From Heterotrichella gracilis (Eukaryota; Sar; Xanthophyceae; Tribonematales; Xanthonemataceae), in NCBI GenBank assembly GCA_032358255.1, contig JAULBX010014759.1, positions 1-64,000 on the forward strand: a stretch of 64,000 nt of DNA, read 5' to 3'. Positions 1 through 60,831 of this stretch are shown here, piece after piece (the stretch's first letter is position 1; each line of letters starts with the position of its first letter). Below the pieces are notes generated by a model, which saw only the letters and a program-made list of their open reading frames with translations, was not told the origin of the DNA and made no database searches. Both the position numbers and the translations under genes were made by a program.

Positions 1-3000
1 CACCCCCCTCACCACCCCCTCATGATCATCCTCATGATCATCATCTTCAAAATTATAGGAGGCAACCGCCTCATAATCGGCGGCAGGCGCCGCGCGGGGA
101 TCCGGAGCATCCCCATACCACCAGCTGCTCCACGAGTCGAGGACAGTGGTGAGGTAGCTGTGCTGCTGATGCGCAGCAACCGCTGCTTCAAAGGCGTGCT
201 CGTGCAGGAGCTTGAGTAGGGAGGCTTCCACCTGGCCTGCCGAGGGGCGCCGGGTGGGTGTCTGGTGCCAGCAGGCGGTGACAATGTCCTGGGTAAGGGG
301 AGGGAAATGCGTTGGTTGCAATTCTTTGTAATGTTATCAATCAATTTATTTGCAGGCGTTTGGTGCTTAGGGTTTAGGGTCATGGTTTGGACCGTGCTGC
401 TTCAAAGGCATGCTCGAGCAGCAGCTTGAGTAGGGAGGCTTCCACCTGGCCCGCCGAGGGGCGCCGGGTGGGTGTCTGGTGCCAGCAGGCGATGACAATG
501 TCCTGCGTACAATGGAGGGGATATGCATTGGTTGCATTTGTTTGTAGAATTATAAGTCGGTCTTACTTGCAGGCGTTTGGTGCTTAGGGTCATGATTTGG
601 CGCATGCTGCTTCAAAGGCGTGCTCGTGAAGCAGCCTGAGTAGGGCGGATTCCACCTGGTCCGCCAAGGGGCCCCGGGTGGGGACCTGGTGCCAGTCTGT
701 CTTGGATTGGGCGAGGTGGGTTCAAGGTGCAGCATTTCAAGAGGAGGGTTTAGAGGTTTAGGGTTTAGGGCTGGCCCTACCTTCATGGGTTGGCTCAGGG
801 CCTGGGGCAGCTTGGGTCGGTAGCCCTGGGCGGTCCTGAGTGCATGCACCGATCCCAGCAGCCGCGCATCCCCCCCGCCATCCTTCACCGCACCTATCTG
901 GGCAGACAGCGAGCACCTCGAAAAGAGCTCGTATAGGATGATGCCCAGGGAGAAGATGTCGGCCTGCAATTTCAGGAGGAAAACAAAGGTTTTTAAAAAA
1001 AATAGAAAAAAATATATCAGAATAAGTATTTTTCCTAGTGGGAAATGCTCGTACAAGATGATGCCCAGGGAGAAGATGTCGGCCTGCAATGTGAGGAGGA
1101 AACACAAATCTTTATATTATAAATAGAAAAAATAAGAAGAATAAGTATTTTTCCTAGTGGGAAGTGCTCGTACAAGATGATGCCCAGGGAGAAGATGTCG
1201 GCCTGCAACGATGGGGTGGAAAAACAAATATTCATGATAAAAATAAAGGAAAGCTCGTGCATTTCCTAATAAGAAGAGCTCGTACAGGAGGATGCCCAGA
1301 GGGAGGATGTCGGCCTGCAATGTGAGGAGGGAGAAACTTACAAATTTCACAGAAAAAGCAAAGTTATCCTAGTAAGAAAAGGTTGCTCTCCCGATACCAC
1401 CACTGCCACTACCAAAATGGACTGTCCACCACCGTCACAATTGCAAAAATAATCCACCCACCTTTTCGTCATAGTCTTGGGCTGTCATCACCTCCGGAGC
1501 CATGTACATGTATGAACCCACGTCAGCACTCAGCCGCCGCCGCCGCTTAGGCCGCTCCTCCCCCCCCTCCTTCTGCGCCCCATCACCCCCCCCACCCCCC
1601 ACCCCACCGCCACCACCAGCCGCATCCGGTGCAGCAGGCTCCGATGCCAGCTGCTGGGATGCGAATGCGGGTTTTGACAGGATGTGCCCTCCATCGTAAT
1701 CCACTGCGGTTGAGAGTCCAAAGTCGATGATCTTGGCGTCCCGTTGGGACAGCAGTGCGTGGCCTGGGGATAGAAGAAGTTGCAGTTTTAGAAAATGAGA
1801 GACATAGGAAATGTGAGGCAACGAAAATGAAACAGATACAACAGACTACACATCATAACTCGTTTTCGTACGAGATTACCAAAACATACCAACATTACAC
1901 GACAACGTACCACATGCACATCCCCATGCTCAGAATAGCCTGCAAGCCTACATGACCCTGTCATGACATTCATGTAGGTTATCGTGAAGCAGGGAGCCGC
2001 TCTTGACCATGCTTCTGCAAGCACTACTTGTGGGCAAGACGCTCTCGCGTGAAACCCTAAACCCTACACCCTACCTGTGAGCAGTATGTTCTCTGACTTG
2101 ATGTCTCGATGCAGCACCTGGACGCAGGCAGCACACAGAGTTTAGGGTCTATAGAGTGCCCTCTAGAGTCTTCATGCAGCACCCAAAAGCAGGCACCACA
2201 TGGCGCCAACTCAAACCCTGCACCCACCACCCGGCACCCACCACCCTCACCCCATCTACACCACCCACCATGCACAGAGTGTAGCAACCCCCACCGTCAA
2301 CCCCCCCACCCGTCACCCCCCACCCCCACCCACCCACGTTGGGGCTAAGTGTGTGTGTGTAGTGCAGCGCCCCCTGCTACCTGCGCCCCCCACCTCGGCA
2401 CTTTCCCCCCAAATTACAGGGGGGTGAAGGGGCGGTCTGGTCCGGCAAATGCTGGCTAAAATTACCCTGGTGCGTACCTTCCCCACCCCTTTCTCCCCCA
2501 CCACCCATAGGGCTGAGCGTGTGCGGGTAATGCAGCAAAATCCCCACCCACCTTGGGGCTGAGTGTGTGCATGTAGTGCAGGGCCCCCGCCACCTGCGCC
2601 CCCCATTTGAGCGCTTCGACTTCAGAATACAAGGGGGTGAAGGGGCGGGTCATCTGGTCCAGCAGCAGCTGCCGCAGGGTGCCACCTGGCATGTACTCTT
2701 GGACGATGAACAGGCTTTTCTGGGCTGCCAAGGGGGCGAAGGTATGCGCGCACCCCACGCCCAGGACTTGGACAATGTTGCTGCGGGGGCCAGGGGAGAG
2801 GCAGATTAAAGGTGAGAAATACAGCAACATGAAAGGGCCAATCCGCTTGGCCGAGCAAAAAGCTGGCGAAGGGTGGTTCACGGCATGTATTCTTGACTAT
2901 GAATGAATTATTTGGGGCTGCCATGGGGGCGAAAGTGTGTGCGCACCCCAAGCCTAGGACTTGGGACGATGTTGCTGTAGAGTGGGGGGAGATGCATGCC

Positions 3001-5219: not shown

Positions 5220-8200
5220 TCATTCCTCCTCCATGATTGGGGTTACACCGCTGTCTGCAGCCGCGGTGGCTGATGGGCGCAGGCGGGGGTCAAACTGGTC
5301 CAGGTCAGACAGGTTGTCCCTCGAGGCCACCCGCACCATCTTCAGGAAACCCTCAAAATCAATTTCGTCGGCGTCTGCAGGCGTTAACGCACAGCAATTA
5401 GAGCGATGCAGATGACAATGAGAACAAACAGTAAACTCCAACGTTTAGGTTCTAATAATTTTAATATCATATCACAAAGTCATATCTCAAAAAAAGTTAG
5501 ATGCTGAAGTTGAAGTTACAATCCCTGCATGCTGTGCTCGCCTGCATACCCAGCCTCCCCAATGGCATCCATCACAGCTCTACCCACCTCCTCAGCATAC
5601 ACCCGTGACAAGGGCGCACTACCAAATCTCCCCCATTTAGCTCTACCACCCCCGAAAACAGCCCCCCCACCCCCAGCCCCCACATACATCCAAAACTCCC
5701 AAATCCCCCCCAGAGTTTCCGCAAGACGCTAGTTCCCAAACAGCACACCTGCGTAGCCTGCCTCCATCATCGCATCCTCCACAGCCCAATCCACCTCCTC
5801 AGCAGGCAGTCGAGACCGCAGCGCCTCAATGAGACCGTCCCTGCTCAGCAACCCCCCCCGCGCATCCAGGCCCTCGAATGCCGTGCGAGCACAGGCAAGC
5901 CACTGCTCGCGGCTGTCCTCTTGGAAAACCTACGCAAGGGTTTGAGCAGAGTTGTAAGGGTCCTGGGAAACGTACCCACATTTCTTGGCGGGATCTCCAA
6001 AAGGGATTGAGGCTGGCCACAAACACGCTGTCGCATGGCACCCACCAAACCTCCTTCTCATACTGTTCCATGTAGGGTTTCCTTTAGGGTTTTGCGCCGT
6101 ACCTGCCAGTCCAGTTGGCTGGCCACAAACTCGCTCTTGTGCAGCAGCCCATCTCGGTTTACGTCCAGCTCCTCAAGCAGCTGCTCTAGCTCAGTCTGCT
6201 CAAGGTCGTAGCCTGGGCACAGGAGGGAGGTTTAGGGTTTGAGGGTTTTGGGGTTGATATCCAGCATCTTGAGTGAGTGCTCAAGATCGTCGCCTGGGCA
6301 CAGAAAAGGGATTTTGCATTTTTGGTTTCGGGTTTCGGGTGAGGTTGTGATAAGGATACAGGTAGAATGTATCGATAGCATTCTCGGTGGTGCATTCAAT
6401 GGCGTTTCCAGCAGGAATTCACATCCAGCTCTTCCAGAAGTCTCAGTCTGCTCAAGGTCGTGGACTGGGCAGAAATGTTTGGCAGGCTTAGGATAAAGTA
6501 TGTGCTAGGAGGTCAGTAGGCTTTTCGGCAGGGTTTCGGCATGAATTTTCAATTTTAAATGGGTAGGGTTTGGGTAAAGTTCCCAGTAGGGTTTTGGGTT
6601 TTCGCGTCCAGCTCCTCCAGTAGCTGCTCAAGCTCAGTCTGCTCAAGATCCTAGCCTCGGCACAGGGGAGAAACAGGGTTCACAGCTGGTTTTTGAGTAA
6701 ACCTTTTGGCAGGGTTTTGCGTAGGGCTTGGGCTTTGTTTTTGTCCAGTTCAAGCTGGCTACAACCTTGAGCATCTCCTTGCTGAAGGTTATCGCCACCA
6801 ACCCTAGATTTTGAAATGTTGGAATTGTTAGAGTTCTTGGACGCAGCTCATTTATGCAACTCAGCCATGAGGTCAACTGTCACAACATGCAGTCATTGCC
6901 CTTACTAGATATCAGGGTTTCCGCTAGGCTTTCCACTAGGGTTTGTGGCTTGCTCACCTAGCCTGTGGAGCCCATCCGCCAGCGTTGCGTAGGACATGCT
7001 GTCGTTGCCCTTCTCAAACGACAGGCTGCGCAGCACGTGCTTCAAGGTGCTGGGGGTTGCTACCGTCTCCTCTGCAGGACACAAACATGTGGTGCATCAG
7101 TAGCAGATCACTAGACCCTTAACCCTAGGTACGTGCTTCAGAGTGCTGGGGGTTGCTACTGTCTCCTCTGCAGGACGCAAAAGTGGTGCATCAGTAGGCG
7201 ATCAAACCCTAAACCCTAAACCCTAGGTCCGTGCTTCAGGGTGCTGGGGGTCGCACCATCTCCTCTGCAGGACAAAAAAGTGGTGCATCAGTAGCAGGTC
7301 ACTAGACCCTAAACCCTAAACAGTAGATCCTAAACCCTGGGGGCATGCTTCAGGGTGCTGGGGGTTGCCATTGTCCCGTCCGGAAGCCATACAAGGATCA
7401 GAGTCCGATCAATGGTCCTACATCCTATACCAGTACCCTAAGCGGCATCCTCGAGGTCAATGGGAGTCATTGCTGTTCATCTGCACCCTAAACCCTAGCA
7501 CCAAGCTGGGTGGCACAGCCTGGTGCACCGTTAACTACAATACTGCCCTGATGATCATGGGAGTGAGGAGCTACAGAGCGAAACTCTAGTGAGGAGCTAT
7601 AGGACGGAGATGCATGGGATGGGAGTGGGAAGCTATCGTGCAACAGGGGGAAGAAGCACACAAGGGGCTACCTGCTGACGTGGTTCTTCGAGGCGGCTCG
7701 GTGGCAAAGCGCACGGTGTTGCCACCTGGCGCCGCCCCACCCCCCACATCCCCACCACCACCCCTCCTGCCACTCCCCACCGCCACAGGGGGCACAGCAC
7801 CAGGCATGTGCTGTGGTGGGGTGGGTGCGTTTCCTCCCCTCGCATCCTGACCGCCGCCAGTACTATTTCCCCCTTGACCCTCCACATATTGCTTGAAGAG
7901 CCCCTGTCCCCTTACTGCCCGCTCGGGTTCGCTGCTATCCCCATCGGGAGTGGGGGTGGGGGGGCCGGCAAAGGGGTTGATTGTGGGTGGAGCGGGCTTG
8001 GAGGTGGCGGCGGGGGCCCTGGCAGGGGGTTTGGCGGGCTGGTGGTGGAAGTCAGGGGAGGAAACAGAAGAGGAGAGCATGCCCTGCAGGGGACGGGGAA
8101 AGATGCACACATCAACCCCCTGGCAAACAAAATAAGCAAAACTATAAACCCTAAACGGGAGAGAGAAACGTACCGTGCAAGATGGGGAAAAGCACTAACA

Positions 8201-11200
8201 ACATCACCTCACCTCAATAAACCTTCACCTCTATGCCCCGGCACCCCTTTACTCCAATCTTCGGCAAAACAAACCTTACCAAACCCTGCCCAAAACCCTA
8301 CTGGCCCGTACCTCGTCCCCCTGCTCTTTGACAGCTGCGAGACCAGCGAGCGGTAGGCGACCCAAAACCCTACCATAACCCTCAAAACCTCACAATTACC
8401 CAAAGAAATCCAAATCTCACAATGACCCAAAGGAATCCCAAAACCCAAATCCAACCAAAACCCTGCCCCAAACTCACCGGCTCAGATCTCCGCCCCCTGC
8501 TCTTGGATAGCTGCGAGACCAGCGTGCGATACCCAGGCGACCCATGCTGCGAGGTGTCCAGCGCTATGCGGGCGGCCTTGCGCTGCTCCTGGCGCTCAGC
8601 GGGGGTGCGGCTGGCGGTGCGGGCATAGTCGCCAAAACCATGCACGCTGCCTGTGGAAAGGGGGGTGCGGTAGAGGAGGTCAGGGCGAGGCGCACTTATA
8701 CCGCTGCGCACACATTTGGCAAAATTGGGCAAGAGATTGGGGCTGAACTGAGCAGGAAATGGGTAGCAGGGGGTGCGCCTTAGAGTTGGTCCTGGTGCTC
8801 AGCAGGGGCAGGGCTGGCGATGCGGGCGCTTATGCAGAAAAGCCTGCATGCTGCCTGTGAGAAAAGAAGGGTTTGATATAGTAGGCGGAGGCGTTCTGCT
8901 GTCACCAATATTTTCTAACTTAATACACCAAAACAAGGCCCAGGTTTCAGGATTTCAGCTAGAAGGTTTTAGAATTTGTATCCGGCCTACCACTGAATGT
9001 TCTTAGGGTAACCCCCAGGAAATGCCAAGGCTTTATGGCCGCCTTAAGAGTTTAGAACTAGGGTTTAGGGCCCTACCGCTTGATGTCCCTGCCATCGCCA
9101 CCGCCGCCCTCAGTAATCGCCAGTACTCGCTACCACCATGCACTGAGTGAGGGCGCTTCTTCTCAAGGCTGCGGCGCAGAGTGGCAGACCTGCATCAAAT
9201 CACAGTTGCTGCAGGCTGCATATAAGTTATTGGGACGACACATAGGTCACCGTTCATTTGTAAGAACAACAATGGATACTGGCAATATATGACCGAAATA
9301 AGTAGATGATACCCCATGGCGTCCATCCCTTCCTGTTCTGTTACACCCCCACCCCCCCCAACCCCTCGTGCGCCAACCCTGGGTTGCTGCCCTCATTCCC
9401 AATTCCCATCCCTGCTGTTGTTGTTGGCCATACATCCTCCCTCTACAACCCTGACTAACACAGCCCCCCTGCTCCTGTTACTGACACAAATCAGGGCCGA
9501 AAGCAAGACAATCCCCCCCCACCTGCTTCTGTAAAACTCCGCCCCGTCGTGCGCTGATCCCGGGTTGCTGCCTATATCCCCACTGCTCATCCTCGAGCCA
9601 CTGCTGGTGGCCCGCCCCATGAGGGTACCCCCCCCGGTGCCATGCATCGACTCCCCCTTGAGGTAGGTGGCGCCCGAGGGGGTGCCAAAGGAGAAGGAGC
9701 CCTGCATGGGAATAGGGGGGCAATGTCGGATCGAGTATTGGGGAGGGAGTGTGGGCCCTGATCAGCTTCACACCTGACTGCTGATATGACTGTACCTCTG
9801 GGATGCATGTCGTTTACTACCCAGATGGTAAGCCCAGATCAGGTTTATGTTGGGGGTTGTTTCAAAAGGATGCAGGGAAAGGCTGGCATGTTTTGTGGCC
9901 AGATGGGTACAATGCATGGAGCCAACTGTGCAGAAGTCGCCCCCCGCAGAGGAAAATGAAGGGAAGATGTTGCCTCTTTAGGAGCAAACATAGTATATGT
10001 GTTTGGTTAACGAGCAAACGTAGTAAATTTGTTTGGTTAACAATGCTCACAAATGTCTACTGAATAGGACTGGCCTACGCCTTGCAAAAGCCATGGATAG
10101 CGTTGGTGGCCAGGGCTCATGGAGGGTTTTTGGCAAGGGTATTGGGAAGCCCTACCGAGCTGAATGAAGCACCCATTGACTGGAACGGTGAGGGGCCAGG
10201 CGACGTGGGTGTCCCCCGATCCCCCATGCTGCACATGGCAAGGGGAGGATGTTACTCACAGCTAGAGAAGGGGAGGAATTACTCGCAAGGTGGAAAGAGA
10301 GACATTCCTTACACAACAAGGGAAAGGAAAACTCCTTGAAGAAGCCTAGGCAATCCATCGACCAACAAGGGACAGCCTGAGATTCACATAACAGGGAGAG
10401 GATGATACTCAAAGGCAAGGGAAGGGTGTTATTCATTACAAGAAATGGGGGGCATAATCCACAACAGGGGACAAGGGCAGGACGTACATTCACCAATATC
10501 CAGCACTCGGTGTGCACGCACTTTACACTAGGGTTTGTTGGGCTGCATGCACCCTACCCTAGGGTTTGGCGAGCTGCACGCACCCTACCCTAGGGTTTGG
10601 CGAGCTGCATGCACCCACCTTGCCAGCGCGCTTGCGTTGTGCATCGAAGCCTTGAGGGACCTCATTGGAGCCTGATTTTGTACCAGCTCCTGAGCGAATA
10701 TGCCCAGACTTTTAAAAAATACTTTCCCCACCACTGCCAGTGCCACCGACACCCATCCATTACCACCACCACCTTTATCACCACAGCCCGATTGCCTTCC
10801 ACACACCCTCCCAGTACCCCCTCCTTACCTTGCCAGCGCGTTTGCGTTGTGCACCGAGGCCTCGGGAGACCGCAGCGGAGGCATGATTTTGACCAGCTCC
10901 TGGGCGATCATGTCCAGAATGGTGCGCTTAAGCAGGCTGGACTGGGCAAAGCGCTGCAGAAGGGGTGAGAACAATTGCAAGTTAGGGGAGAGGTAAAACG
11001 GTGTCCAATAAGTTAATTAGACCAACCTCATTGAGCCCCGATCTGGGTAGTCATGTCGATGCTGCGTCAGTGAGGCTAGTCGAGGCAATGCAGCGTGATT
11101 GTGACCAGCTCATGAGCGATCATGTCCAATATTATGCCCTTGAGCAGGTTCATTGGGCCCCAACCCGTGCAATCATGCGACATTGCATAAATCGACGTCG

Positions 11201-14200
11201 ATGTAATGTGGCGCGATTTTGACGTGAGCCAGCTGCTTGAGCTCGTAATAAACTTGCCTGGATATCATACCCACAATCCCCTTACTTAGACGGCCACAAC
11301 ACCCTTATCTAGGGTTCCCCTCAACTGGATGCGCTGCACTACCGAGTGTTACAGCGCCTTGGGTGGCCATCCTCCATATACCAAGGGCGCTTCAGGGCCA
11401 CAATACCCTTCCCTAGGGTACCTCCATCACTCACCTGAATGCCCTCCACCACCCACTGCACCACCAGCACGTCGCACACAACACCCTTATCTAGGGTATT
11501 TCTCACCTGGATGCGCTGCACCACCGAGTGCGACAGCGCCTTTGAGGGTTGGTGGCCGTCCGCCATGAGCCAAGGGTGCTTCAGGGCTGCCATGGCGGTG
11601 GGGCGCTGGGTGGGATCCCTGGGCGGGAAGGGTGAGGGGCAAGGATTTGGAATGGTGGGGGCAAGGGTGTGTATACACGAGGTACGCGTGTGTGAAGGAG
11701 GGAGAAAGAGGAAAACCCTAAGAGTTTTCTGCATGTGCGTCAGGCAGCGAGCCCCCACCAGCCACGACTTAACGAGATGAGATGCTGACGTGATAGGCAC
11801 TGCTTTTTCAGGCATTAGAGGTCGGCAGAATCCTGCGCACCCCCAGACATCCCCCTGCCGTGCACTCCCCCTGAACCCCAAACCCTAAACCTTAAAGCCC
11901 TACTTGTTGAGGCACTGCTTGACAAAGTCCTGCGCCTCCTCTGACACCCCCTGCCACGCGCTCCCCTTGAACCGCGGCTCCTCAGACAGAATCCCCTTCC
12001 TGCACAGAGGGTGGTTTTGAATCAGGGTTTCCCCATAGCCCTGCAAATTTTGCAGATTTATGCACTGGGATTCACATTTGTGCACTGCTATCTTCAGATA
12101 AACACAACGCGGCCCTTCAAGGGCATGCAAAGACATTCATGCACAAGAAGGTAACACCCGCAGAAGGATATATGCACACACAGCCATGCACAGCCCCCTT
12201 ACCATATGATGGAGAGCGCGGGGTTGGTGGGCCTGGCTCGGTCATCAAATGGCATGTAGCCTGAAAGTAGCTGGAAGGCCATCACCCCAGCTGACCACAC
12301 ATCCGAAGCGGGGACCACTTGGCAGGACAGCACTTCGGGGGCCATGAACCTAGGCAAGGGTATTTTGAGGTCAGCCTATGCAATGTAAATGTGGTAAGAT
12401 CACCAGGCCAAACACATAGATCCGCATGGCTCCCCATGCAAGCGTTCTGGGTAGGCCATGCATGCCAAACATGAAGCAATGACACAAGGAAACTGCAATG
12501 GATGATAGAAATTTTGTTGCATTTAAGGCCACAAGACACATGGGGTGGAGATTCCGCTGAACGCATGGTGTCGCAGGTTGCCGGGTGGGTGGCAGGTTAT
12601 CAAACGGGACAGAAACCCTGCCGTAGGGTACCTTCCAGCCTCAATCAGAGATCTTCTAGTGATGCATTTTGCGTAGGGCTTAATGTGTATTGTCTGGGGT
12701 TCCTCCTCCTACCATGGGGTCCCTTCGAGTCCCAAATCAGTGCGGGGGAGCTTCTCGGGGTCAAAATACACCGCCAGGCCGAAATCTGTGTGACATCACG
12801 TCACGTCAAACATTGTTGGCAACAATAGACATGCAACAAGATGGTCCAGGATTCAAAGCACGTGTGCTTGATGTGAAACTTTTTCCCTGCGGAATTTTGT
12901 GCTTGTGGGGCATATGCATGCATATGCTGTGCACGTGCAGAGTTTTTCGGGGTCAAAACACAGCGCCAGGCCAAAACCTGCGGAAGTACCTCGTGTAGAT
13001 TTAAAGCCGTGCCATTTGTGTTAAAGCAGATACCAGGGTTACATCGATGCCCGTTCCCTCCAAGGGGTGGGTGCATGTGGTACATAGGCAAGGCACTGGT
13101 TTCAGAGCGCACCAAATGCCGCCTCATTTTCTCCCCTACCCAGCAACATGAGTTTGCCTGGCTTAATGTGGCGGGGCAGGGTTTATAATTTGGATTTACT
13201 GACGACACCAACTGACGGGTTAGTCTTTTGGTGTTTAGGGTATAGGGTTTAGGACAGCGCACCTATGGCCTTGAGTGGTGAGCCCTGGTCCTCATTGAGC
13301 AGCATGAAATTGCCTGGCTTGATGTCCCGGTGCAGGATTTTGTGCGCATGGCACTGCGCCAGGGTGTGCATCACTGACCGCATGTAGCCAGATACCTGCA
13401 GGGATGACCAAAAAATGTACAAACGGGTTTAGGGTTTAGGGTTTAGGAGCAGTTTTGTTGTTTCTCCCTCCAAGACCGATACCGAGTCTAAGACGGCAGA
13501 CGTTTGTAAACAAAGTAGAGGTAGGTTGCACCACAAAGGCACTGCATCAGGGTGTGCCTTAGCCACCGCATGTAGCCATACATCTGGGAGTTTCCTTTCC
13601 GGCTACCCATGCATTGGACGATGCCGGTTGCCATGTCACTCAACGCGACCTTGTGCCAGACCCCAAGGTGCACCCTTGACATCGTGTAATAGCACGTATG
13701 TACACAAAAAAAGGGTGCATTTGGACTTGCAGGGTGGCCCATAAAGTGCACATGCGCTGGTACCCAATCCCCCAAATTGGCAATCCCAAGAAGAGTGTCA
13801 TGCCACAACTCAATTGCCCAGCCAACCAGCGGATCGAGCCCCCAACCTCCACACCTACCAGTGCCTCACTGTAGTGGCGTAGCCCCACGCGATGCAGCAG
13901 CTCCCCACCCCTACAGTACTCCAACACGATGTGGATGTGGGTCTCATCCTCGAACGCTCCCTCGAAGTGCGCCACTGACAGCGTGCCCCTCAGCTTGCGC
14001 AGGATGGAGATCTCGCGCTTCACGTTGTCTATGTGGGCTGCTTGCTTTTCCACGCTGAAGTTGGGGATGTTGAGCTTCTTTTGGATGGACTTGCATGCAT
14101 AATCGATGCCGGAGGTGATGTCTTTGGCGATGCGAACGAGCCCAAACCCTCCTTGGCCCAAAGTGGGTCCAAGGGTGAAGCGTTCTGCCAGGTTCCTTGG

Positions 14201-16015: not shown

Positions 16016-20085
<4,070 letters not shown>

Positions 20086-36185: not shown

Positions 36186-36222
36186 ATGATGCAAACTTTG
36201 AATTTCTCAAAGTTTGCATCAT
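36186..36222. repeat. 16 bp perfect inverted repeat, 5-nt loop
   Basis: Arms atgatgcaaactttga (36186-36201) and its exact complement (36207-36222) enclose atttc. The foldback is in A/T-rich intergenic DNA. Confidence 0.85.
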
Positions 36223-36543: not shown

Positions 36544-36622
36544 GGTTACCCTTGTTTCCAGCTTGTGTGCAAGAATATAAAACCGTAATATTCTTGCACA
36601 CAAGCTGGAAACAAGGGTAACC
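36544..36622. repeat. 35 bp perfect inverted repeat, 9-nt loop
   Basis: Left arm 36544-36578 begins ggttacccttgtttcc; right arm 36588-36622 is its exact reverse complement; the loop is aaaaccgta. It lies ~150 bp past the VPS3 stop, probably in the VPS3 3' UTR or just beyond. The RNA would be a long perfect hairpin, like small-RNA precursors of green algae. It could equally be a recent inverted duplication. Confidence 0.9.
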
Positions 36623-36772
36623 CCGCTCAGACAGAAAAAAACAAGAAAAGCGCCAGCAAATGATACACATTCTTACCCACCCATCCACAACACCACCCAG
36701 CCCAAGAAAACCCATTGGCCCCCCACTCCCACCCCGCACCCACCTACCGCCCCGCTCCCGCGGCAGGGGGTG

Positions 36773-48200: not shown

Positions 48201-51200
48201 CCTTTCAGTGGAGGGGCTGAAAGCTTTAGCACTGCAACCCTCTCTGCTGCGCTGACCAAGGAGATATGCACACTAGGCAGCACTATGTACACAGCATCCG
48301 GCCCTTGGATGTGACCTCTGTGCTGCGCAGACCAACCCAATGCTGCGCGCCTTGCTCTTTGGCTACAAGCGCACAGCAGCATTATGGAATGTGTAGGGTT
48401 GGGCCTAAACCCTGACCTCTGTGCTGCGCAGACCAAGGAGAACCTAACCCTGCGCGCCTCCAGCTTTGGATCCAAGTGCGAACTGCCCGACCCCTTCCTC
48501 ACCAAGGTGTTCAAGTGCGGCATTGCGGACAACATCCTCTCCTTTGCAACCTTCAAGCAGAACAAGGATCTCAAGAAGAGCGATGGGGCCAAGCGCCAGC
48601 GCATCGTGGGTGAGTATTATAATAACTGTGAATTGATGGGTGTGACTGCAATGTATGGCCTGCAAAATCAGCACTGGCAGTGCGCATGACAAAGCATTTG
48701 TAGCTAGATGATGCCACACTGTCAATTTGCGGACTTTATGAATATCACGTGATAGCTGCAGCTCATGAGTGGCAGTATACATCACTGCCGAATAGTCAGC
48801 AGCATGGCCAATACATCAAATTTCATGCATAAAAACCTGGACGGGTCTGAGGCATGCCACCAGGTCAGCACAATGGGGTGAGGAAAGGGCTTAAAGGCTT
48901 TGAAATACTCTGGCTGCACTGCTTGAAAGTATGGCATGGCATGTGGTGGCTACGCGCAAAGAGGCATGCTACTAACCTTGCGTCTTGAATCGTTGCCAGG
49001 CATCCCCAAGCTGGACGACGCCAATGAGGCTGGTGGCAGGAACTCCGAGCGGTGCACCCTCATCCTCACAGAGGGAGACTCTGCCAAGACGCTGGCGGTC
49101 AGCGGACTGAGTGTGGTGGGCAGGGACAACTTTGGTGTCTTCCCACTCAGGTGGGTTGGGTTAGGTGGGTTGGGCCTTCATATAAAATTGGTATTGTGCT
49201 TTCATTGGTTTGCACATAACAACCTCTCGAACCGGAATGAGGAATCTGAGGGGCAATCTTCAATTGCAACTTGTCAAATGGCAAGCCCATTTTGGCAGTC
49301 GCCCTGGTGGCAGCGTAATGTGTTGCGCTTGGGCCAGCACATAACGACATGCTTCATTGTGCGCCTGCAGGGGAAAGCTGCTGAATGTGAGGGATGCCAG
49401 CGCGGTGCAGATCTCTGCAAACGCAGAGATCCAGAACATCAAGCAGATCCTGGGCCTGCAGCATGGCAAGGTGGGCAGCGCACCATGGTTCCCAGCATAT
49501 CAGTTCGTTCAGTCAAACTGTAATTGAACCCACTGTTGCCTGTGCCCTCCTTGCTGTCATGAAGCCGCGCACACCAATGCATTGGCTGCATGGCTCGGCC
49601 TACGCACAGTAGCACACCATGCACTGGAGCTAGTGAGTCTACAGTGTGCAGTTGTAATCACCATGAACTGATGTGACTGATATATGCTTCTGAAATACAA
49701 ATAAATAATAAGAATTCATTTGTTTGTGTTTCAGCAATACACTGACGTGAAGCAGCTGCGCTACGGCCACCTGATGATCATGGCGGACCAGGACCACGAT
49801 GGCTCCCACATCAAGGGCCTCATCATGAACTTCTTCCACCACTTCTACCCATCCCTGCTCAAGCTGCCGGGCTTCCTCATCGAGTTCATCACGCCCATCA
49901 TCAGGGTGAGGAACACATGCGCATAGCACGTGCACAGCATGCCCATCAGCAGAGCATGCAGTGTACACAAACATACCGACTAGATTAGTATGTCCCTGGA
50001 GAAGGTGACAGTGCTCTCCAGCCACACATGTGCATGTGGCACCCATTGTGCGACGCGCACACTTAGTTGCATTATTTTTCCAGGCCACCAAGGACCGTCG
50101 CACCATCTCCTTCTACACCATCCCTGAGTACGAGGAGTGGGTGGAGCAGCAGGGCGACCGCCAGCGCCAGTGGAAGATCAAGTACTACAAAGGGCTGGGG
50201 ACCTCCACCCCCAAGGAGGCCAAGGAGTACTTTGCAGACATCCAGAAGCACAGGAAGGAGTTCCAGTGGGCAGGTATGCAACTTTTAAAACCAAACCACA
50301 AGCAACAGATCAGACCAGATCTGTCTGCATTGTGTGGACATCAGGCATCACTTCCATCCCATTTTAAGGCATGAGATTGGTCTATGAATCGGTTATGATG
50401 CTGTGGTATCTTGACGTTTCCTTTCCCATCAGGAAAGCAGGAATTTTTGTTGTGTGTATCATATTGGTGATTCTCACCCTTTTTTGCTTGCGCTGTTCAG
50501 ACGAGGACGACGGCGAGGCCATCAACATGGCCTTCTCCAAGAAGAAGATCGAGGAGCGCAAGGCGTGGCTGCGCAACTTTGTGCCCGGCACCTACCTGGA
50601 CCACTCCCAGAACCGCATCAGGTACACGGACTTCATCAACAAGGTAAGGCGCATACTGCCACTGTGGGCTGCAGGGCTCAGTTCGTGGTATTGCGGCGGT
50701 ATTGATAACCAAACCCTTAACCCTACACTCTGACCTCACTCACTGTGCAATGCCACACTGTGGACATTTCTTGACCCCCGTCCCTACACCTATCTGAGCA
50801 CGTTGTACACACGCGTTGCTTTGCGAATGTGTGCGCCTGAAAATCCTGCATGCTATTTCCACCTCCCAAAAGCCTACTCAACCCTCCCCTGCTCCCTACC
50901 CCGCTGCAGGAGCTGATTCTCTTCTCGCGTGCCGACCTTGAGCGCTCCATCCCCTCCATGGTGGACGGTCTCAAGCCAGGCCAGCGCAAGATCCTGTATG
51001 CGTGCTTCAAGCGCAACCTGCGGGCGGAGATCAAGGTGGGGCGTGGACATTGAAGGTGGCTGCTGACATGCACTGCAGGGCCATACTTGCATTCCATCAC
51101 ATGTCCGTAATGACGACCCGTGTCATGCACAATGCATGTGTTGCAGCAGTGTTGCCAAATGGCACCGCCGATGCTGACTCCGCCAAGGTGTCACTGCCCA

Positions 51201-54200: not shown

Positions 54201-57200
54201 GAGCCTGGGATATAGCTGGAGAGGGTCCTGGGCATGGGTGCACACACATGGGAGCCACAGGTAGCCCGGACCTTACACCCTTCCACCAGTGCCGGCCAAA
54301 GACTGCACAGCCATAGTGCTTGGCGAAGGTGTAGCATACTGTGCTGTAGACTGCACATACCTGTGTACACGACGCACCCTTGGTGAACAACTTTGTATGA
54401 AAGTTCTCCCCTTGCTCCAGGCCGCGAAGGCGCATGACGTGACCAGCCCAGACGACGAGGAGGAGGCCCCTACAGGCGCCACCTACGACTACCTGCTGTC
54501 AATGTCCATCTCAAGCCTCACGCTGGAGAAGGTGCGTGGGGGCTAGTTAGCAAGTGACTCAGTTGTTATGATTCATATAACTTATTAAAGAGCAGGTACA
54601 CCAATGTATTGGCAATGCTCCTTCCAAATTACCACATCTCCTTGCCCTACTTTCCTTCCCTTGCTGCCTCTGTCTATCGAATCCCCCCAATGCCCTCCCC
54701 CTCCCTCCTCATAATCCCCTTTCTTGCAGGTCTGGATGACTAGACATTAGGGATGACCAGCCATTTGGAGGCCCTGCAACACACCTCCCCTCCCTTGCTA
54801 CCCATTCCATCCCTCCTGCTTCCATTTCTTCTTCCATTTTGTACCCCTCTGATCTTTACCCCCTCTTCCCCCCCTTATTCCCCTCTAGGTGCGTGCCCTG
54901 GATGACGAGGCGTGTGAGATGGCCCGCCAGCTGGAGGCCCTGCACGGCACCTCTGAGAAGCAGATGTGGGTGTGTGACCTGGACGCGCTGCTGGTCAGCC
55001 TGGAGGAGTATGAAGCAGAGGCAGAGGCCAACGACAAAGCGCTGGCTGGGCAGCAGAACAGGGCCAGGGGGGGCAAGAAGGTGCGGGGGGAGAGGCTGTA
55101 TAGTAAGGGGAGGGGTGTTGCCTACATTCCCTTGCAAATGGACATGTTGGAAACAGTGCACTCTGCTGATCTGCCTGAGAGGAGTACGAGGCGGATGGAG
55201 AGCCTACCAATTAAGGTGCTGACTGGGCAGCAGAATATGGCCAGAGGGAAGGGGGAGGGGGCGCTGTGTGTTGTGATTGACCCCCTGTAAATTCGTAAAA
55301 AATATGTGATTGGAAAAAAACTTTTTATTGTGTTACATGCCATTTTCCTTGCGTGTGAATTTCTGGATGACAAGCCATTGGCCAGCCAGCAATGCAGGGC
55401 GCATGCTCATGTCCACACTCTTGTGTGGGCATACATACTCAAGTGCCCGACAAAGCTCCCTTCCTCATGCTCTTCACTTTTGTTTGCGTGCAGGCCAAGG
55501 GTGGCGCCAAGAAGAAGGGTGGGTATGGCTCGGACTCTGACGACGAGTTCATGGATGGGGACGAAGATGACAGCTGGGGCGCAAAGGTGAGCCACGCATG
55601 TTGACAAACCAAGCATGAGCGCGCCAACACCTAATCAATATTTTAATTATATACGGTGTATGAATTGTACATAATAATATTGTCACTATATTATTATTGT
55701 CACAATTCCCACTCCGCGTGTATTCATACTAACTATTGTACCATCAAGCACCCAAGAGATCACTAAAAACCTTTGATTTCCTCTGCAGCCCAAGAAGAAG
55801 GCACCAGCCAAGAAGACAACTGGCTCGGCACCCATGCCTGCGCAGGACCCAGGCGCGCCAAGGTGGGTGCACTCGCCTTTCTTCAAGGCTGCATGCTCAA
55901 GACCATATCTTGCACCTGGATGTCATGCGCATTGGCATGCCTGCAGCTGACATGCGCTATACTGCACACCCTGGCACGCACATTGTGTACCTGCCATGAT
56001 GGTTGCCAACGCTGACACAGACCACCTCCCTCTCGTTAAAAAGTACCGCATTGCAATAAATACTCCGCCACAAACAACATTGCTCGTTTTTGCAAGCAGG
56101 CCCGCCCCGGTGCCCATCCCCGCCCCGGGCCCCATCCCTCCGCCGGGCACCAAGGCCCGCGGCAAGAAGAACGGCGCCCAGCCCGCCACCTCCGATGCCA
56201 CCGACCTCATGGACCTCACTGAGCCTGCACCGCAGCTGGCATCCAAGCCCAAGGCAGTGGCCAAGAAGGTCCCTGCAGCCGCCAAGCCCAAGGCTGCACC
56301 CGCCAAGGTGGCCAGCACGTCTGCGGGTGATGACTCGGACGAGGATGACTACCAGCCCAACCTGATGGACCGGCTGGCAGGTGGGTGCAGGGTTTACCAG
56401 ATCAATATTGCATCACCATATTATATCCTTTTAATTTCAATTACCATTTAGGACAAGGGTTACATTATATGCCCCCTCACTCTGCATGCCCTCTCCAAAC
56501 CCCATGGGCACCCACAATGTGGAGTGTGATCAATTTATAACTCGATTATTTTAAGGGCATATTTTCTGACACCCTTCTCCAAATACCTGTTCCCAGGCCG
56601 CATGGGCACCCTCAATGTGGAGACCTCCGATGCCAGCCGTCCCCCACGCGGTTCTGGTCGGGCTGCAGTACACAAGCCCACCAGCTACGCAGAGGGGAGC
56701 GACAATGGCAGTGATGGCGAGGAGGAGCCCTCAGGCAGCGAGGTCAGCAGCCCAGAGGAGGACAGGTGAGTGGGTGAGGGGCAAAGGGGTGGATGAGGAT
56801 TGTAGCCCAGTGTAGGGTGTAGGGTGCATGCACAGGCTTTGTGGAGCCATCGGTGAAGAGTGGAGGCTTTTTGTGGGTCCAGGGTGCCCGCTGGGGTAAT
56901 TTGGCAGGCAGCCAGGTTGACTTCAGACTTGGTTGGAGTGTGGGCAGTGCACCTACTGCAGGCCCTGACCCCTCCCCCCACCTGTTTGCAGTGACGACGA
57001 GGTGGCTTCCCCTGTGGTGGCCAAGCCCAAACCCGCCCCAAAGCCAAAAGTCAAGCCAAATGTGGCGCTAGAGGACAGGTAGGTGCAGGGCTGTTGTCAA
57101 GTTAATGATTAGTATGGTACTCGCTGGCATTTGGGCATAAGAATCAAAATGGAGCTTGTAAGTGCCTGGCCCTGACGCCCACCCTTTCCTGTTCAGTGAT

Positions 57201-58901
57201 GATGAAGTGGCCTCTCCTGCGGTGGTGAAGCCCAAGCCCGCTGCCAAGCCCAGGGCCATGCAGCAGGTGGCAATGGAGGACAGGTACGTGTGTGAAGGGC
57301 TGGGGTGAAGGGGCTGCGGTTGTGAGATTGCCTGAGAAGTGTGCATAGTTGTAGGGTTTTAAAGAGGATATTGTGATGGCATTCTGGGGGATGGGTTTGA
57401 GAACAATGGAGACCAAATTCCCTTGACGCCCACGCTCACGCAGATGCCCTCCTTTCCCTGCAGCGCCAATGAGTTGGCCCCCTCACAGGCTGCCAAGCTC
57501 AAGCACCTCCCCATCACCCACTCAGATGCTCCCCCCCTTGCAGTGATGACGAGATGCCCTCCACCGAGGCGGCCAAGCCCAAGCCCGCCCCCAAGCCCAG
57601 GGCCCGCCCCGCAGCCGCGCGCCCCAAGGCGGTGGAGGTGGTGCTGCTGAGCAGCGATGACGACGAGGAGGAGGAGATTGATGATGATAGTGGCAGCGAG
57701 TTTGAGGGAAGCGACCCCACGCCGGTCAAGCCCGCCAAGAAGGCGCCAGGTAAGGGATAGAGAAAATCTTTTTGATACAAGGGAAATTACATTTTATCAA
57801 AAGATTTATGTAAGATCTAGTTGTCTGTTTTTGTGTGTCTGATTAAAATGAACTGCATGGAATCCCTGTCATTGAGGCTACCACATGCCGAGCACCAATT
57901 TGGGCACACATGAGACAGGGACTCAATGATGGAGCTGGGCAACAGTAGGGCGTGCATGCCATGCGGCTGGGGATGATTCGATGTGTGCAGAGAAGCAACG
58001 ATGCATTGCACAAGTATGACAATGTTACAAACACCCTGATACAAAAAAAATCCCCATCCCAAAAATACCAATATACAAAATTGGCAGCATGCTTTGACGT
58101 CAACTGATCCCTTGCCTCCCCCTTCCCATGTAGCCCGCAAGGCCCCAGCAGCCAAGCCTGCCCCCTCCGCCAGCCAAGCCGGCGCCAAGCGCAAGCCAGC
58201 CGCAAAGGGATCAGCCGCAACCCTGCTGGCACGCCGGGCAGTGTGCGCCAGCACGAGCGGCGACGCGTACCACTTTGGGGATGACCTGCAGGAGAGCGTG
58301 GCCTCGCCCTCAGTGGTGCCCAAGGTGCGGGAATAATAGGAGAGAGATATTGCTGGGGTGAAAGTGTGGGGCTGTGGGTGACATCCCGCCTGTCGCATGA
58401 GTGCATGTTGTTGCATGCTAGCCCCCAAGGGCAGCTTGGCAGATTTCCCCATGCGAGCTGTTCAGATTGGATCTCGTCCCGTTGCCATCTTGCCATAGCA
58501 AAGCTCAGTTGTTGCTCGCCACCCTCCCCTGAGCCTAATGATCAGTGTGTCCATTATGATGTAAATAGATAATTGATTTACTTATTTATATTTGTTTCCT
58601 AAACCCCATCCCCCTCCTTGCGCAGAAGGTCAGCCGCATGCGCCCCTCGCCCTTCCACAAGGGGTCAGGCATGCCCAAGGCTGCCAAGGCCAAGCCCGCC
58701 GCCAAGCCATCTCAAATCGATGACTCAGAATCTGGCGAGGAGGGAGGCGACTCCCCTGCAGCGGCAGCCCCTGCACAGGCTCGGGGCCGCCCCGCCCGCC
58801 GCGCAGCCACCGCCGCTGCCATCCGCTACGTGGAGGACCTGGGGAGCAGCAGTGAGGAAGGGAGTGGGGATGATGCATCGGAGTTCAGCGATGATGAGTG
58901 A
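45270..58901 (+). CDS. TOP2: DNA topoisomerase II
   Basis: Thirty-two exons, 1673 residues: 45270-45317, 45709-46026, 46189-46326, 46659-46955, 47192-47347, 47620-47693, 47851-47971, 48432-48609, 49000-49150, 49371-49470, 49735-49905, 50084-50273, 50501-50643, 50910-51035, 51294-51449, 51699-51832, 52051-52288, 52630-52757, 53111-53229, 53509-53633, 53965-54108, 54421-54531, 54889-55080, 55494-55586, 55789-55862, 56100-56380, 56597-56765, 56992-57078, 57197-57283, 57544-57749, 58134-58324, 58626-58901. The enzyme passes one duplex through another using ATP. The GHKL ATPase is residues ~25-250 (DEILVNAADN, NNGNGIPV, GGRNGYGAK ~171-179). TOPRIM has EGDSAK (~468) and DQDHDG (~545). The catalytic Tyr is in ARYIFT (~799). 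After ~1120 comes an acidic/Lys-Pro tail like other eukaryotic TOP2 tails. Introns 5 and 7 use GC donors. Duplicated exons build part of the tail. Confidence 0.97.
48245..48385 (+). repeat. Shadow copies of the 5' edge of TOP2 exon 8
   Basis: A copy at about 48318-48375 repeats the gtgctgcgcag acceptor and the first ~40 nt of exon 8 (real edge 48432). A fainter one is at about 48245-48270. Confidence 0.75.
51845..51965 (+). repeat. Shadow copy of part of TOP2 exon 17
   Basis: EGMNAWGSISIPNY at about 51905-51945 resembles EGIGTGWSTSIPNY of exon 17 (52051-52288). It is a decayed copy on the upstream intron side. Confidence 0.65.
56992..57600 (+). repeat. Tandem repeat exons of the TOP2 C-terminal tail
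   Basis: Exons 28 (56992-57078) and 29 (57197-57283) are both 87 nt, phase 2-2, and encode near-identical 29-residue units starting SDDEVASP. Exon 30 (57544) starts with the same unit (SDDEMPSTEAAKPKPAPKP). A decayed copy at 57464-57540 keeps an acceptor but has no donor, so I left it out of the CDS. Confidence 0.9.
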
Positions 58902-60831
58902 GGGTGGGAGGGGAAGGGGCAGGAGATGCCTGCACGTCGGCTGGGGCGCCTGGAAAGGTCCATGGGGATTTCCTCACCTGTATCATTCCCCCAGGCTCGG
59001 CGCCGCAGGGATGCCGCCCGGTTGACCCCAAGAGCAGCGGTGAGGAGGGGCGTGGGGATGAGGGTCCCAATTGTTGGGGGGGCTTTGGTGATGAGTGGGT
59101 GGTGTGATGAAGGAAGGGACGGCCTGGTGGCCATGAAATGCTGGGGTTTATCCCAACAAGGACAAACTTAGATATGTAGCAGATTTTCTAGGGCAAGAGC
59201 AGGACTCCTCCTGGCAAGAGCACACAATGCTGCTTGAGGATCACACATGCATTTAGTGCAATGGCCCAAATGCAGCAGTGCAGGTTTGCAGGCATGGCGC
59301 AAGTAGAAAACAAATCTTAGCATGGCGGTAGCTAGCAGACCAACCTATTACAAGGGGCACTACCCGAACCTCGCCATATTGAGGGAATTCTGGCAATTTA
59401 CCGAGTTTTTGACTTTGCCAAACTTGGCACCTCCTCAGCACACCAATATTTGGCATGGTAGATGTACCCCAAAGCAAACGGTTTTGGAACGATTGTTGTA
59501 TCAAACGCTGGGTAAAAAATCTCATCTGCCAGTACAGTAGTATGATCCCGGATGAATAGGCCTCAAACCCTGGCTCTTGATCTTCAACAATTCCCAGAGA
59601 CGGATAAATATTCACTGAAGATCTGACAGATCAATGATGACATGAACAAAACTGCTTTGCTCCAGGACCTGGTGAATGCCTTCTGTTCCAGTGGACTGCC
59701 CACCATGAACCATCTACCTTCAGGTCTACAAACTTCGATGTCCCATACGGGAGTCACAACTTGACTGCGACAAAATAAATCATCGAATTGCGGATTGGGC
59801 AGGAATAATGGCCATAAATAATTAATTCATTTACAAAAGAGATGGCAACTCTTGGGCTCGCAACTGCCAGCTTTGTGGACAATGGCGTGTATGAATCATC
59901 AGATAGAGGGACAGAGCGTTTATTTCCAGTACATCCACTATGCATTCAGGGAGTGTGTGGTACTACCCTATTGCACCTCCTCAACACTGTCAGACAGTGT
60001 ATCGCCATAAAATTATATTGGTGACTGAGAGGGGTCTAGACTCGCTGAGCGTCTCTGCTCACTGTGTCGGCACAGAGTCTACCAGGTACCTGACAGAGAC
60101 GGTGTATTGGGAATGACCCCTCAGAATCGGACACGGTCGCGACTCGCGGGCCTGGAGTTAATCCAAATAACCGTTATAAACTACCAGTATTGGGCAAAAA
60201 CAGTTCATTGAGCTTTGTTGCAGCATTATTTCAGAGTATTGGGCCATCCGGTCGGGTCAGACTTTGAGGGGCCATTCCCAATACCCCATCGTTATAAACA
60301 TTTTACATAGGGTAGTGCAAGTATTCGGGATTTTGCTGGGTATTATAATAGAGTACGTATTATGCATTGCGTTAAAATATATGACATACATTGTACCGGC
60401 CAATGAAGCAAAATATCCAGTTTCCTCAAAACTGGTCATATTGCGGTATAAACTTGGAGAGAATAGCATTCCAAACTATGGATTTGTTTTTAATAATCTG
60501 AGACACTCAACACAAGCTCAACACAAAATTGGTATTCAACCACACACTCCTCTAGGTAGTACGAAAAAAGAACCCTCCCCAACGCTCAACATGGCATCAC
60601 CCTTGTTAAACCATCCTGCATGTCATTGATGCAATAGTTATCTCCGGCCTTGCCTACCACTCGCAGCAATACATCAACCTGCATTCTCCTCTGGTTGGAG
60701 ACAATGGGCAATGTCATACGTAAAGGTACCCCATACCCAAGACGCTGTTTCTGCATTTGTTAACTGGCTCGCGAGCGTCACCCCCACCGCTCCAATAAAA
60801 CACCCCACCCACCCCACCCCATCTGGCTTTG
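58902..60831. other. Convergent intergenic region TOP2 / kinase
   Basis: No supported gene. A partial copy of the last TOP2 exon lies just past the stop (about 58990-59105). The rest turns A/T-rich and holds an inverted-repeat element at 60100-60288. Open frames here (for example 59253-59615 minus and 60264-60629 plus) have no recognisable domains or coding bias. Confidence 0.55.
60100..60288. mobile_element. Small inverted-repeat element, MITE-like candidate
   Basis: Terminal segments 60100-60123 and 60265-60288 are complementary at 21 of 24 positions around a tattgggaatg core. They enclose ~140 bp of non-coding DNA. Size and structure fit a non-autonomous foldback, but no target-site duplication was identified, so it may be only a hairpin. 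Confidence 0.35.

What the first reader, a model, noticed from the sequence alone, without database searches (positions are those of the whole stretch)
1..59105. Junction-spanning tandem duplications fill the introns of seven of the nine genes
In seven genes I find more than 25 places where an exon edge and the intron next to it have been duplicated, usually one to three extra times, in units of about 75-150 bp. The rule is consistent. Acceptor-edge copies lie upstream of the exon in the transcript, donor-edge copies lie downstream, and each keeps its splice site. This implies an ongoing process that lengthens introns by copying exon-intron junctions and creates many competing splice sites. 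Tandem duplication is a known route to new introns, but this density and polarity over many unrelated genes seems unusual. The two exceptions are the membrane-protein gene and the partial kinase at the right edge, where I saw none.
Basis: partly seen in the sequence, partly recalled or inferred. Interest (0 to 1): 0.85.

Follow-up and report, generated by a model that had tools for sequence, protein, structure and literature searches.

The report
Copied exon edges lengthen algal introns
In this green alga many introns carry decayed, apparently non-coding copies of the edge of the neighbouring exon, often separated by telomere-like filler, which points to error-prone DNA repair beside exons as one source of longer introns.

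Summary
Gene models give nine genes; the seven named carry exon-edge copies at 28 automatically called junctions. In 28 sequences, 41 of 275 donor edges match their downstream intron above the 99.9th null percentile (0.3 expected) and 30 of 275 acceptor edges their upstream intron; reverse-complement controls give 0 and 1. 58 of 333 introns carry copies and are longer (median 386 against 274 nt).

The polarity rule is geometry: any tandem duplication across a junction leaves the extra copy in the intron. Most copies look like neutral relics: 41 of 45 indels break frame, and copied splice sites are not clearly kept better than neighbouring bases.

Two features need explaining. Spacers between copies are mostly unrelated sequence (42 of 46); 17 of 39 hold a telomere heptamer, against 6% of matched intron pieces and 1.5% of intergenic ones. 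Comparable duplications away from exons are scarce, though detection bias explains part of that.

Best explanation: break repair by end joining with filler, filtered by selection; a new variant of known tandem-duplication mutagenesis. Splicing of the copies is untested.

The parts
182..695 (-). Kinase gene: acceptor edge of exon 1-288 plus two upstream copies
   Evidence: pairs 182-485/396-695 and 182-271/606-695; (predicted exon 398-502 is taken as a copy)
923..1330 (-). Kinase gene: acceptor edge of exon 781-963 plus three upstream copies
2329..2664 (-). Kinase gene: donor edge of exon 2552-2780 and one downstream copy
2667..2977 (-). Kinase gene: acceptor edge of exon 2552-2780 and one upstream copy
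5541..5804 (-). CDPK-like gene: donor edge of exon 5749-5929 and one copy (79% in the exon part)
6162..6666 (-). CDPK-like gene: acceptor edge of exon 6103-6212 and a copy 443 nt upstream
7035..7368 (-). CDPK-like gene: acceptor edge of exon 6958-7071 and an array of upstream copies
8265..8544 (-). CDPK-like gene: donor edge of exon 8478-8650 and one copy
8575..8864 (-). CDPK-like gene: acceptor edge of exon 8478-8650 and one copy (75% in the exon part)
10617..10918 (-). CDPK-like gene: donor edge of exon 10829-10953 and one copy
10881..11148 (-). CDPK-like gene: copy upstream of the acceptor edge of exon 10829-10953 (alignment stops 17 nt short of the junction)
11295..11587 (-). CDPK-like gene: donor-side copy; the modelled exon edge at 11435 is probably misplaced (edge near 11506 by eye)
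   Evidence: reading
16409..16766 (-). POR gene: donor edge of exon 16719-16796 and three downstream copies with telomere-like sequence at the unit joints
17197..17336 (-). POR gene: acceptor edge of exon 17078-17235 and one upstream copy
18036..18321 (-). POR gene: donor edge of exon 18254-18403 and two downstream copies
18965..19204 (-). POR gene: copy downstream of the donor edge of exon 19144-19322 (alignment stops 8 nt short)
19447..19789 (-). POR gene: donor edge of exon 19730-20085 and three downstream copies joined by telomere-like filler
26008..26233 (-). MCM-binding protein gene: donor edge of exon 26216-26569 and copies
26508..26717 (-). MCM-binding protein gene: copy upstream of the acceptor edge of exon 26216-26569 (alignment stops 17 nt short)
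28567..28850 (-). MCM-binding protein gene: donor edge of exon 28773-28973 and one copy with 95-nt spacer
32970..33184 (+). Proteasome subunit gene: acceptor edge of exon 33144-33366 and one upstream copy
33284..33565 (+). Proteasome subunit gene: donor edge of exon 33144-33366 and one downstream copy; the 96-nt spacer matched only itself in the genome search
33787..33985 (+). Proteasome subunit gene: donor edge of exon 33729-33841 and a downstream copy
   Evidence: further decayed copies by eye
34563..34682 (+). Proteasome subunit gene: acceptor edge of exon 34654-34767 and one upstream copy
35161..35288 (+). Proteasome subunit gene: acceptor edge of exon 35270-35311 and one upstream copy (a third by eye)
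40737..41271 (-). VPS39-like gene: donor edge of exon 41208-41367 and an array of downstream copies
41316..41535 (-). VPS39-like gene: acceptor edge of exon 41208-41367 and one upstream copy
41721..42059 (-). VPS39-like gene: donor edge of exon 41910-42173 and one copy sharing 150 exon nt
42235..42514 (-). VPS39-like gene: donor edge of exon 42423-42590 and copies
42532..42761 (-). VPS39-like gene: acceptor edge of exon 42423-42590 and one copy
48312..48479 (+). Topoisomerase II gene: acceptor edge of exon 48432-48609 and one copy (76% in the exon part)
54988..55248 (+). Topoisomerase II gene: copy downstream of the donor edge of exon 54889-55080 (alignment stops 9 nt short)
56961..57604 (+). 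Topoisomerase II gene: tandem duplication of whole exons with introns in the repetitive tail, a different class from edge copies

Best explanation
The copies are relics of small local tandem duplications, mostly 40-140 nt by a capped estimate, that began inside an exon and ended beyond its edge in the neighbouring intron. They were probably made when breaks with staggered ends were filled in and joined, with filler DNA captured at the joint; the filler often holds telomeric repeat. Some first events seem to have been amplified later as a unit of exon edge, intron part and filler, giving arrays with a period near 100. Duplications wholly inside exons are removed by selection. Those crossing an edge survive because the real exon can still splice, so the copy ends up in the intron and decays. 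Shown: local, mainly direct copies; geometry; unrelated spacers; telomere enrichment; mostly neutral-looking decay; presence on many contigs. Inferred: break repair as the cause, capture of telomeric DNA, later amplification. Not explained: why duplications of this size are scarce away from exons; an exon-biased source of breaks is one guess.
For: Local: 54 of 59 window pairs direct and near, 5 inverted, 0 direct and far. Right side 38 of 49 in the window and 30 of 35 in the sampled loci, wrong side only 0 and 0. Donor edge against downstream intron 41 of 275, upstream 1 of 275; acceptor edge against upstream intron 30 of 275, downstream 6 of 275 (perhaps because 60-nt edges overlap in short exons; not tested); reverse complement 0 and 1. 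Spacers without significant similarity to the outer intron: 42 of 46 two-copy cases. Telomere heptamers per kb in the window and loci L009-L035: exon 0.14, intergenic 0.25, other intron 1.47, at copies 9.74. With the telomere-selected loci left out, the 7-mers most enriched in spacers over intergenic DNA are telomere words, and 17 of 39 spacers hold a heptamer against 6.0% of same-length intron and 1.5% of intergenic pieces. Decay: differences by codon position 0.082, 0.078, 0.203, and 41 of 45 indels not a multiple of 3. One copy matches the last exon of a CCT gene to within 8 nt of the end of its coding sequence and lies beyond the stop codon, where no splice site is involved (L026). Literature: tandem duplications at breaks with 3' protrusions by CST-Pol alpha fill-in and end joining (PMC8355091, abstract and passages read); short interstitial telomere tracts attributed to break repair (PMC6410037, passages read).
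Against: Ordinary repair duplications should also fall in introns and intergenic DNA; 7 non-repetitive intron-only and 2 intergenic merged events were seen against 64 touching or within 25 nt of an exon, though that last class is generous because introns are short. In a segment test at a strict threshold, intron interiors match their surroundings in 12 of 596 cases against 7 of 1192 controls and intergenic DNA in 11 of 850 against 11 of 1700; at a lenient threshold 30 of 596 against 18 of 1192 and 34 of 850 against 27 of 1700, so such duplications are not absent. Detection favours exon edges, where one copy is conserved: simulated intron-only duplications were recovered in 144 to 250 of 318. 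Exon middles also match the downstream intron in 7 of 105 long exons, so not only edges are copied. The order expected if telomerase healed both ends was not seen: near the left copy 9 G-strand and 14 C-strand, near the right 8 and 14 (9 and 12, 7 and 14). Third-position divergence is more than twice that of positions 1 and 2, more than a purely neutral copy predicts; the ratio is about 3 in copies without frameshift. One of 13 CCT and one of 15 telomere-selected genic pairs is wrong-sided.
Confidence: 0.66

Rival explanations
1. Tandem duplications of this size are random over the genome, and the exon-edge pattern is only what selection and detection leave behind: exon-internal ones are lethal, and intron or intergenic ones decay in both copies and drop below detection.
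For: Polarity and direct orientation follow from geometry. One copy of an edge pair is conserved, which helps detection; simulated intron-only pairs were recovered in 144-250 of 318. Intron-only and intergenic similarity is modestly above control.
Against: With 254 introns of mean 348 nt and units near 89 nt, my arithmetic gives about two intron-only start sites for each junction-spanning one, so dozens of intron-only events would be expected beside 53 junctions; few are seen. Intergenic pairs by annotation rotation: window 0 against 8.4 expected (0 of 300 as low), sampled loci 2 against 8.8 (5 of 300 as low; L016's 15 array pairs left out). Telomere heptamers are about 6 times rarer in intergenic DNA than in introns.
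Confidence: 0.2
2. An exon- or splicing-directed copying process (for example templated synthesis at breaks near splice sites) inserts exon-edge copies into the adjacent intron.
For: Shared segments are mostly exon (median 52-56 nt) with a short intron part (median 23-27 nt); scarcity away from exons; telomere words concentrated in introns; spacers mostly unrelated to the outer intron.
Against: One copy of a coding-sequence end lies beyond a stop codon with no splice site. In 12 of 46 cases the best spacer-to-outer-intron alignment is in register within 4 nt (my count from the table), so the intron part is partly underestimated. Telomerase orientation rule not met.
Confidence: 0.16
3. The copies are alternative or mutually exclusive exons, or decoy splice sites, kept by selection.
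For: Codon positions 1 and 2 differ less than position 3, with a ratio near 3 in the 48 copies without frameshift. Splice dinucleotides are kept slightly more often than neighbouring exon bases: 71 of 78 against 63 of 79 without the telomere-selected loci.
Against: 30 of 78 copies have frame-breaking indels and 7 of 78 an in-frame stop. In most cases only one edge is copied, so the far splice site is missing. With all loci the splice-site difference is 77 of 87 against 72 of 89.
Confidence: 0.06
4. Assembly artefact or annotation artefact.
For: Nearly identical short tandem repeats are hard for short reads; few pairs are over 97% identical.
Against: Exon parts of at least 30 nt differ by 1.9-25% with the codon-position pattern expected of evolution, spacers are unrelated, and the pattern recurs on many contigs.
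Confidence: 0.02

Closest known systems
[quoted passage not shown] Rogers model as cited there)
   Same: Duplicated segment crosses an intron-exon boundary and carries its splice signals; one case with the acceptor-edge geometry seen here.
   Different: There a new intron arose. Here existing introns grow and the copy stays intronic; 58 of 333 introns are affected, at donors and acceptors alike, and 0 of 110 genic pairs have the two-exon geometry of the Rogers model.
Small tandem duplications from break repair (PMC8355091, abstract and passages read; Schiml 2016 and Vaughn and Bennetzen 2014 recalled, not read)
   Same: Direct tandem copies of similar size; that paper says data from humans and plants hint at nearby nicks on opposite strands.
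   Different: Here long unrelated, often telomeric filler, and strong proximity to exons.
Short interstitial telomeric sequences inserted during break repair (PMC6410037, passages read)
   Same: Short telomere runs inside chromosomes, attributed to repair of double-strand breaks.
   Different: Here concentrated in introns and between duplicated exon edges; no orientation rule.
Introner elements (PMC9860276, start of abstract in a listing; Amoebophrya PMC7789003, passages read)
   Same: Growth of intron sequence in many genes of protists and algae.
   Different: No repeated family seen: two spacers searched genome-wide gave 1 and 2 hits including themselves; of 45 spacers, 6 match elsewhere within 3 kb and 11 match other sequence held, by eye mostly telomeric or simple repeats.

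Membership tests
Rogers-type intron gain by tandem duplication | Exonic unit containing AGGT duplicated so that one copy joins the upstream exon and the other the downstream exon | tested here: not met
   0 of 110 genic pairs have one copy at a donor edge and the other at the acceptor edge of the next exon
Break-repair tandem duplications | Local direct duplications of tens to about 200 nt | tested here: met
Break-repair tandem duplications | Filler or microhomology at the joint | tested here: met
   Filler: 42 of 46 spacers without significant similarity to the outer intron; microhomology not tested
Break-repair tandem duplications | Occurrence irrespective of gene features | tested here: inconclusive
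   Scarce away from exons, but detection power differs
Interstitial telomeric insertions at breaks | Runs of the species' own telomere repeat at repair joints | tested here: met
   Telomere words in spacers (selected loci left out); 7-nt periodicity (selected loci included); (CCCTAAA)n at the start of contig C70
Interstitial telomeric insertions at breaks | Orientation expected of telomerase acting on both 3' ends | tested here: not met
Introner elements | Many introns share a common repeated sequence | tested here: not met
   two spacers genome-wide; 45 spacers against the sequence held only
Mutually exclusive or duplicated exons | Whole exon with both splice sites, reading frame kept | tested here: not met
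   Edges; 30 of 78 frameshifted; whole-exon duplication seen in the topoisomerase II tail

The most novel reading that the evidence does not exclude
This alga has an exon-directed duplication process: breaks or repair patches concentrated on exons copy the exon edge into the adjacent intron, with telomeric DNA as filler. It has kept lengthening introns and might be one cause of the long introns of some green algae.
Probability: 0.3. Interest if true: 0.82.

Novelty: new variant of a known kind. Interest (0 to 1): 0.62.

Why it matters
58 of 333 examined introns carry recognisable exon-edge copies, and their median length is 112 nt greater, so duplication beside exons is a measurable source of intron growth. 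[quoted passage not shown] the edge-against-intron test could be run there. The pattern also links telomeric DNA with repair inside genes, and warns annotators that copied splice sites mislead gene prediction.

Tried and rejected
Considered and rejected: (1) introner-like element. (2) Spacer as a decayed middle copy: in 20 of 29 offset-200 cases it has no strong similarity to the parent (z below 4); most of the other nine look like arrays with a middle copy (my reading). Spacer as the duplicated intron part: no significant similarity in 42 of 46. (3) Telomerase healing of both ends: orientation not met. (4) GC-rich DNA as the whole cause: 68% of exon, 16% of intron and 11% of intergenic 90-mers are at least 60% GC, which helps but by my arithmetic does not account for the deficit; edge GC does not differ between junctions with and without copies (0.625 and 0.610, p = 0.28). 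(5) Polarising events with LHC paralogues: 1 of 8 LHC loci (L038) shows copies, and its introns differ from the others. (6) A second haplotype or paralogue of the proteasome gene: one match, itself. (7) A regression suggesting that templates were already diverged (intercept 0.142) is inflated by noise in small counts and is not used. (8) The 'within 25 nt of an exon' count is too generous to stand alone. (9) My first 7-mer comparison and spacer tallies included loci fetched because they hold telomere repeats; they were redone without these and the result stood. Pentamer counts are weak: 26 of 39 spacers, but also 29% of matched intron pieces.

Rows dropped or changed before counts: ten window exons relabelled as intron; four of 58 chaperonin matches not used (two on C409, one on C180, one on C263) and one of the 54 left out of training; L016's 15 array pairs left out; L002 left out as a near-duplicate of L001; pairs with under 24 or 30 exon nt left out (82 pairs, 61 junctions, 78 pairs used); low-complexity segments dropped. 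The pair tables include telomere-selected loci (10 of 89 pairs). Pairs are not independent where a junction has several copies. The sampled loci are fixed positions on every 45th contig, 16 of 20 obtained, not random draws.


Full report
What was checked. The window is the first 64 kb of contig C149 of a 68.5-Mb genome in 903 contigs. One of its genome's LHC proteins scores best among chains of ordinary length with green-algal LHCII (that 6kac is Chlamydomonas is recalled), so I take the source to be a chlorophyte-like green alga. Self-alignment of the window gave 59 pairs at E<=1e-4, of which 54 are direct and local, 5 inverted and none direct and distant. As I had no annotation I trained a small gene model on the genome's own sequence, starting from chaperonin (CCT) exon blocks; it puts 93.7% of those bases in frame, but they were also its starting data, so this is not an independent test. 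It finds nine genes in the window, eight with a Pfam match, one of these below its cut-off.

Of 49 local direct pairs in the window, 38 cross an exon edge with the copy in the adjacent intron on the expected side and none is on the wrong side only. In 16 loci taken at fixed positions on other contigs the figures are 30 of 35 and 0, with one locus of 126-bp arrays (L016, 15 pairs) left out. Rotating the annotation 300 times never reaches either figure. A more direct test compared 60-nt edges of 275 internal exons with their introns. Above the 99.9th percentile of edges against other introns lie: donor edge to downstream intron 41, acceptor edge to upstream intron 30, wrong sides 1 and 6, reverse complement 0 and 1, exon middles (105 long exons) 7 downstream and 1 upstream. 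Exceptions: 1 of 13 genic pairs in the CCT loci and 1 of 15 in the telomere-selected loci are wrong-sided, and three pairs (two in the window, one in the CCT loci) have both copies called as exon.

Spread. 58 of 333 introns carry a copy, 32 at the donor and 28 at the acceptor; their median length is 386 nt against 274 (p = 0.0017). The pattern is uneven: the proteasome gene has copies in 5 of 5 introns, topoisomerase II in 2 of 32, four of the 11 chaperonin loci (L027, L030, L033, L034) in none, and 1 of 8 LHC loci has any; heterogeneity p = 3.5e-7 over 35 genes or loci.

Polarity is geometry. A tandem duplication that starts in an exon and ends in its intron leaves the uninterrupted exon on one side and the extra edge on the intron side, for donors and acceptors alike. 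The rule is evidence for tandem duplication, not for a directed process.

Most copies look like neutral relics. Between parent and copy, codon positions differ by 0.082, 0.078 and 0.203, and 41 of 45 indels are not a multiple of three. Of 78 copies 30 are frameshifted and 7 carry an in-frame stop. This fits a parent that keeps its protein and a copy that drifts. Copied splice dinucleotides survive in 77 of 87 pairs against 72 of 89 for the two exon bases beside them; without the telomere-selected loci the figures are 71 of 78 and 63 of 79. That is slightly better, but pairs enter this table only if the alignment crosses the junction, which favours it. Position 3 is higher than the simple picture predicts, mainly in copies without frameshift, so a minority could be used; RNA data are needed.

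Anatomy of an event. Shared segments have a median of 52-56 exon nt and 23-27 intron nt, and offsets cluster near 100 and near 190. In two-copy cases the spacer has no significant similarity to the outer intron in 42 of 46. A clear example is L025, where 58 nt at 98% identity are separated by 55 nt. Two spacers searched genome-wide are not a repeat family; of 45 tried against the sequence held, 6 match within 3 kb and 11 elsewhere, by eye mostly telomeric or simple repeats. With the telomere-selected loci left out, the 7-mers most enriched in spacers over intergenic DNA are those of the plant-type telomere repeat, and 17 of 39 spacers hold a telomere heptamer against 6.0% of same-length intron pieces and 1.5% of intergenic ones. 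Heptamers occur at 9.74 per kb around copies, 1.47 in other intron, 0.25 in intergenic DNA and 0.14 in exons. Their order is not that expected from telomerase at both ends.

Where else. Comparable duplications away from exons are few: 7 intron-only and 2 intergenic non-repetitive merged events in the window and sampled loci. Of the seven, by my reading, two are copy-to-copy pairs inside edge arrays, two are minisatellite regions and one is probably an unmodelled kinase exon. In a 60-nt segment test at the strict threshold, intron interiors match their own surroundings in 12 of 596 cases against 7 of 1192 controls, and intergenic DNA in 11 of 850 against 11 of 1700; at the lenient threshold 30 of 596 against 18 of 1192 and 34 of 850 against 27 of 1700. 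Some of the deficit is detection, since 144 to 250 of 318 simulated intron-only duplications were recovered, but my arithmetic from intron lengths leaves a several-fold deficit. In L026 a copy of the last exon of a chaperonin gene, ending 8 nt short of the end of the coding sequence, lies beyond the stop codon, so overlap with an exon rather than a splice site may be what matters; this is one case.

Mechanism. I favour small tandem duplications from joining of breaks with filler, seen through selection, with later amplification of some units. Small tandem duplications by end joining at breaks with 3' protrusions, using the CST complex that also serves telomeres, are described in mouse and human cells (PMC8355091, abstract and passages read), and short interstitial telomere tracts are attributed to break repair (PMC6410037, passages read). 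A link between CST and telomeric filler here is conjecture. The exon bias is the unexplained part.

Known context. The potato RdRp case is one duplication across an intron-exon boundary that produced a new intron (PMC4974935, passages read), and in Drosophila some novel introns may come from exonic tandem duplication (PMC2891723, passages read). I saw no report of the genome-wide pattern in the listings of ten searches of open-licence papers. Core-Reinhardtinia algae have long introns of unexplained advantage (PMC8226300, passages read), so the edge test should be run there.

Limits. 

Noticed in passing
window 56961-57749: Topoisomerase II tail: three similar predicted exons (56992-57078, 57197-57283, 57544-57749) encode repeats of an acidic and proline-lysine motif, so whole exons with intron seem to have been duplicated there.
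   Followed up: partly
L026 4278-4338 and 4463-4520: The end of a chaperonin coding sequence, to within 8 nt of its end, is duplicated downstream of the stop codon with a spacer of 124 nt, like the intron cases but without a splice site.
   Followed up: partly
L016 3204-4628 and 7414-8323: Two arrays of a unit of about 126 bp (67-76% identical) in sequence predicted as intergenic; 126 is a multiple of 3, so it may be an unmodelled repeat protein.
   Followed up: no
L038 against L036, L037, L040: An LHC gene seems to have two introns absent from three paralogues (L036 and L037 share an exon block at 97%) and is the only one of 8 LHC loci with exon-edge copies; gain or loss is undecided.
   Followed up: partly
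window 62878-62954 and 63287-63362: Intron-intron repeat (79% identical, 409 nt apart) flanking a predicted kinase exon at 63060-63123, in a gene otherwise free of detected copies.
   Followed up: no
G000:C180:5368-6876 and C409:166936-168649: Chaperonin matches with little or no intron interruption (C180 one open frame over 489 model positions; C409 two blocks, the first with a TGA) in a genome otherwise rich in introns; C180 may be bacterial or organelle-type.
   Followed up: no
G000:C70:4-74: Contig begins with a run of AAACCCT repeats, a likely chromosome end with plant-type telomere.
   Followed up: no
loci held, (telomere-selected loci included): Telomere motifs often meet as the palindrome CCCTAGGG (17 pairs at distance 3), the order not expected from fusion of two telomerase-healed ends.
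   Followed up: partly
window 22300-24050: The four-helix membrane-protein gene has no detected copies, yet its introns hold telomere heptamers at 4 per kb, perhaps traces of older events.
   Followed up: no
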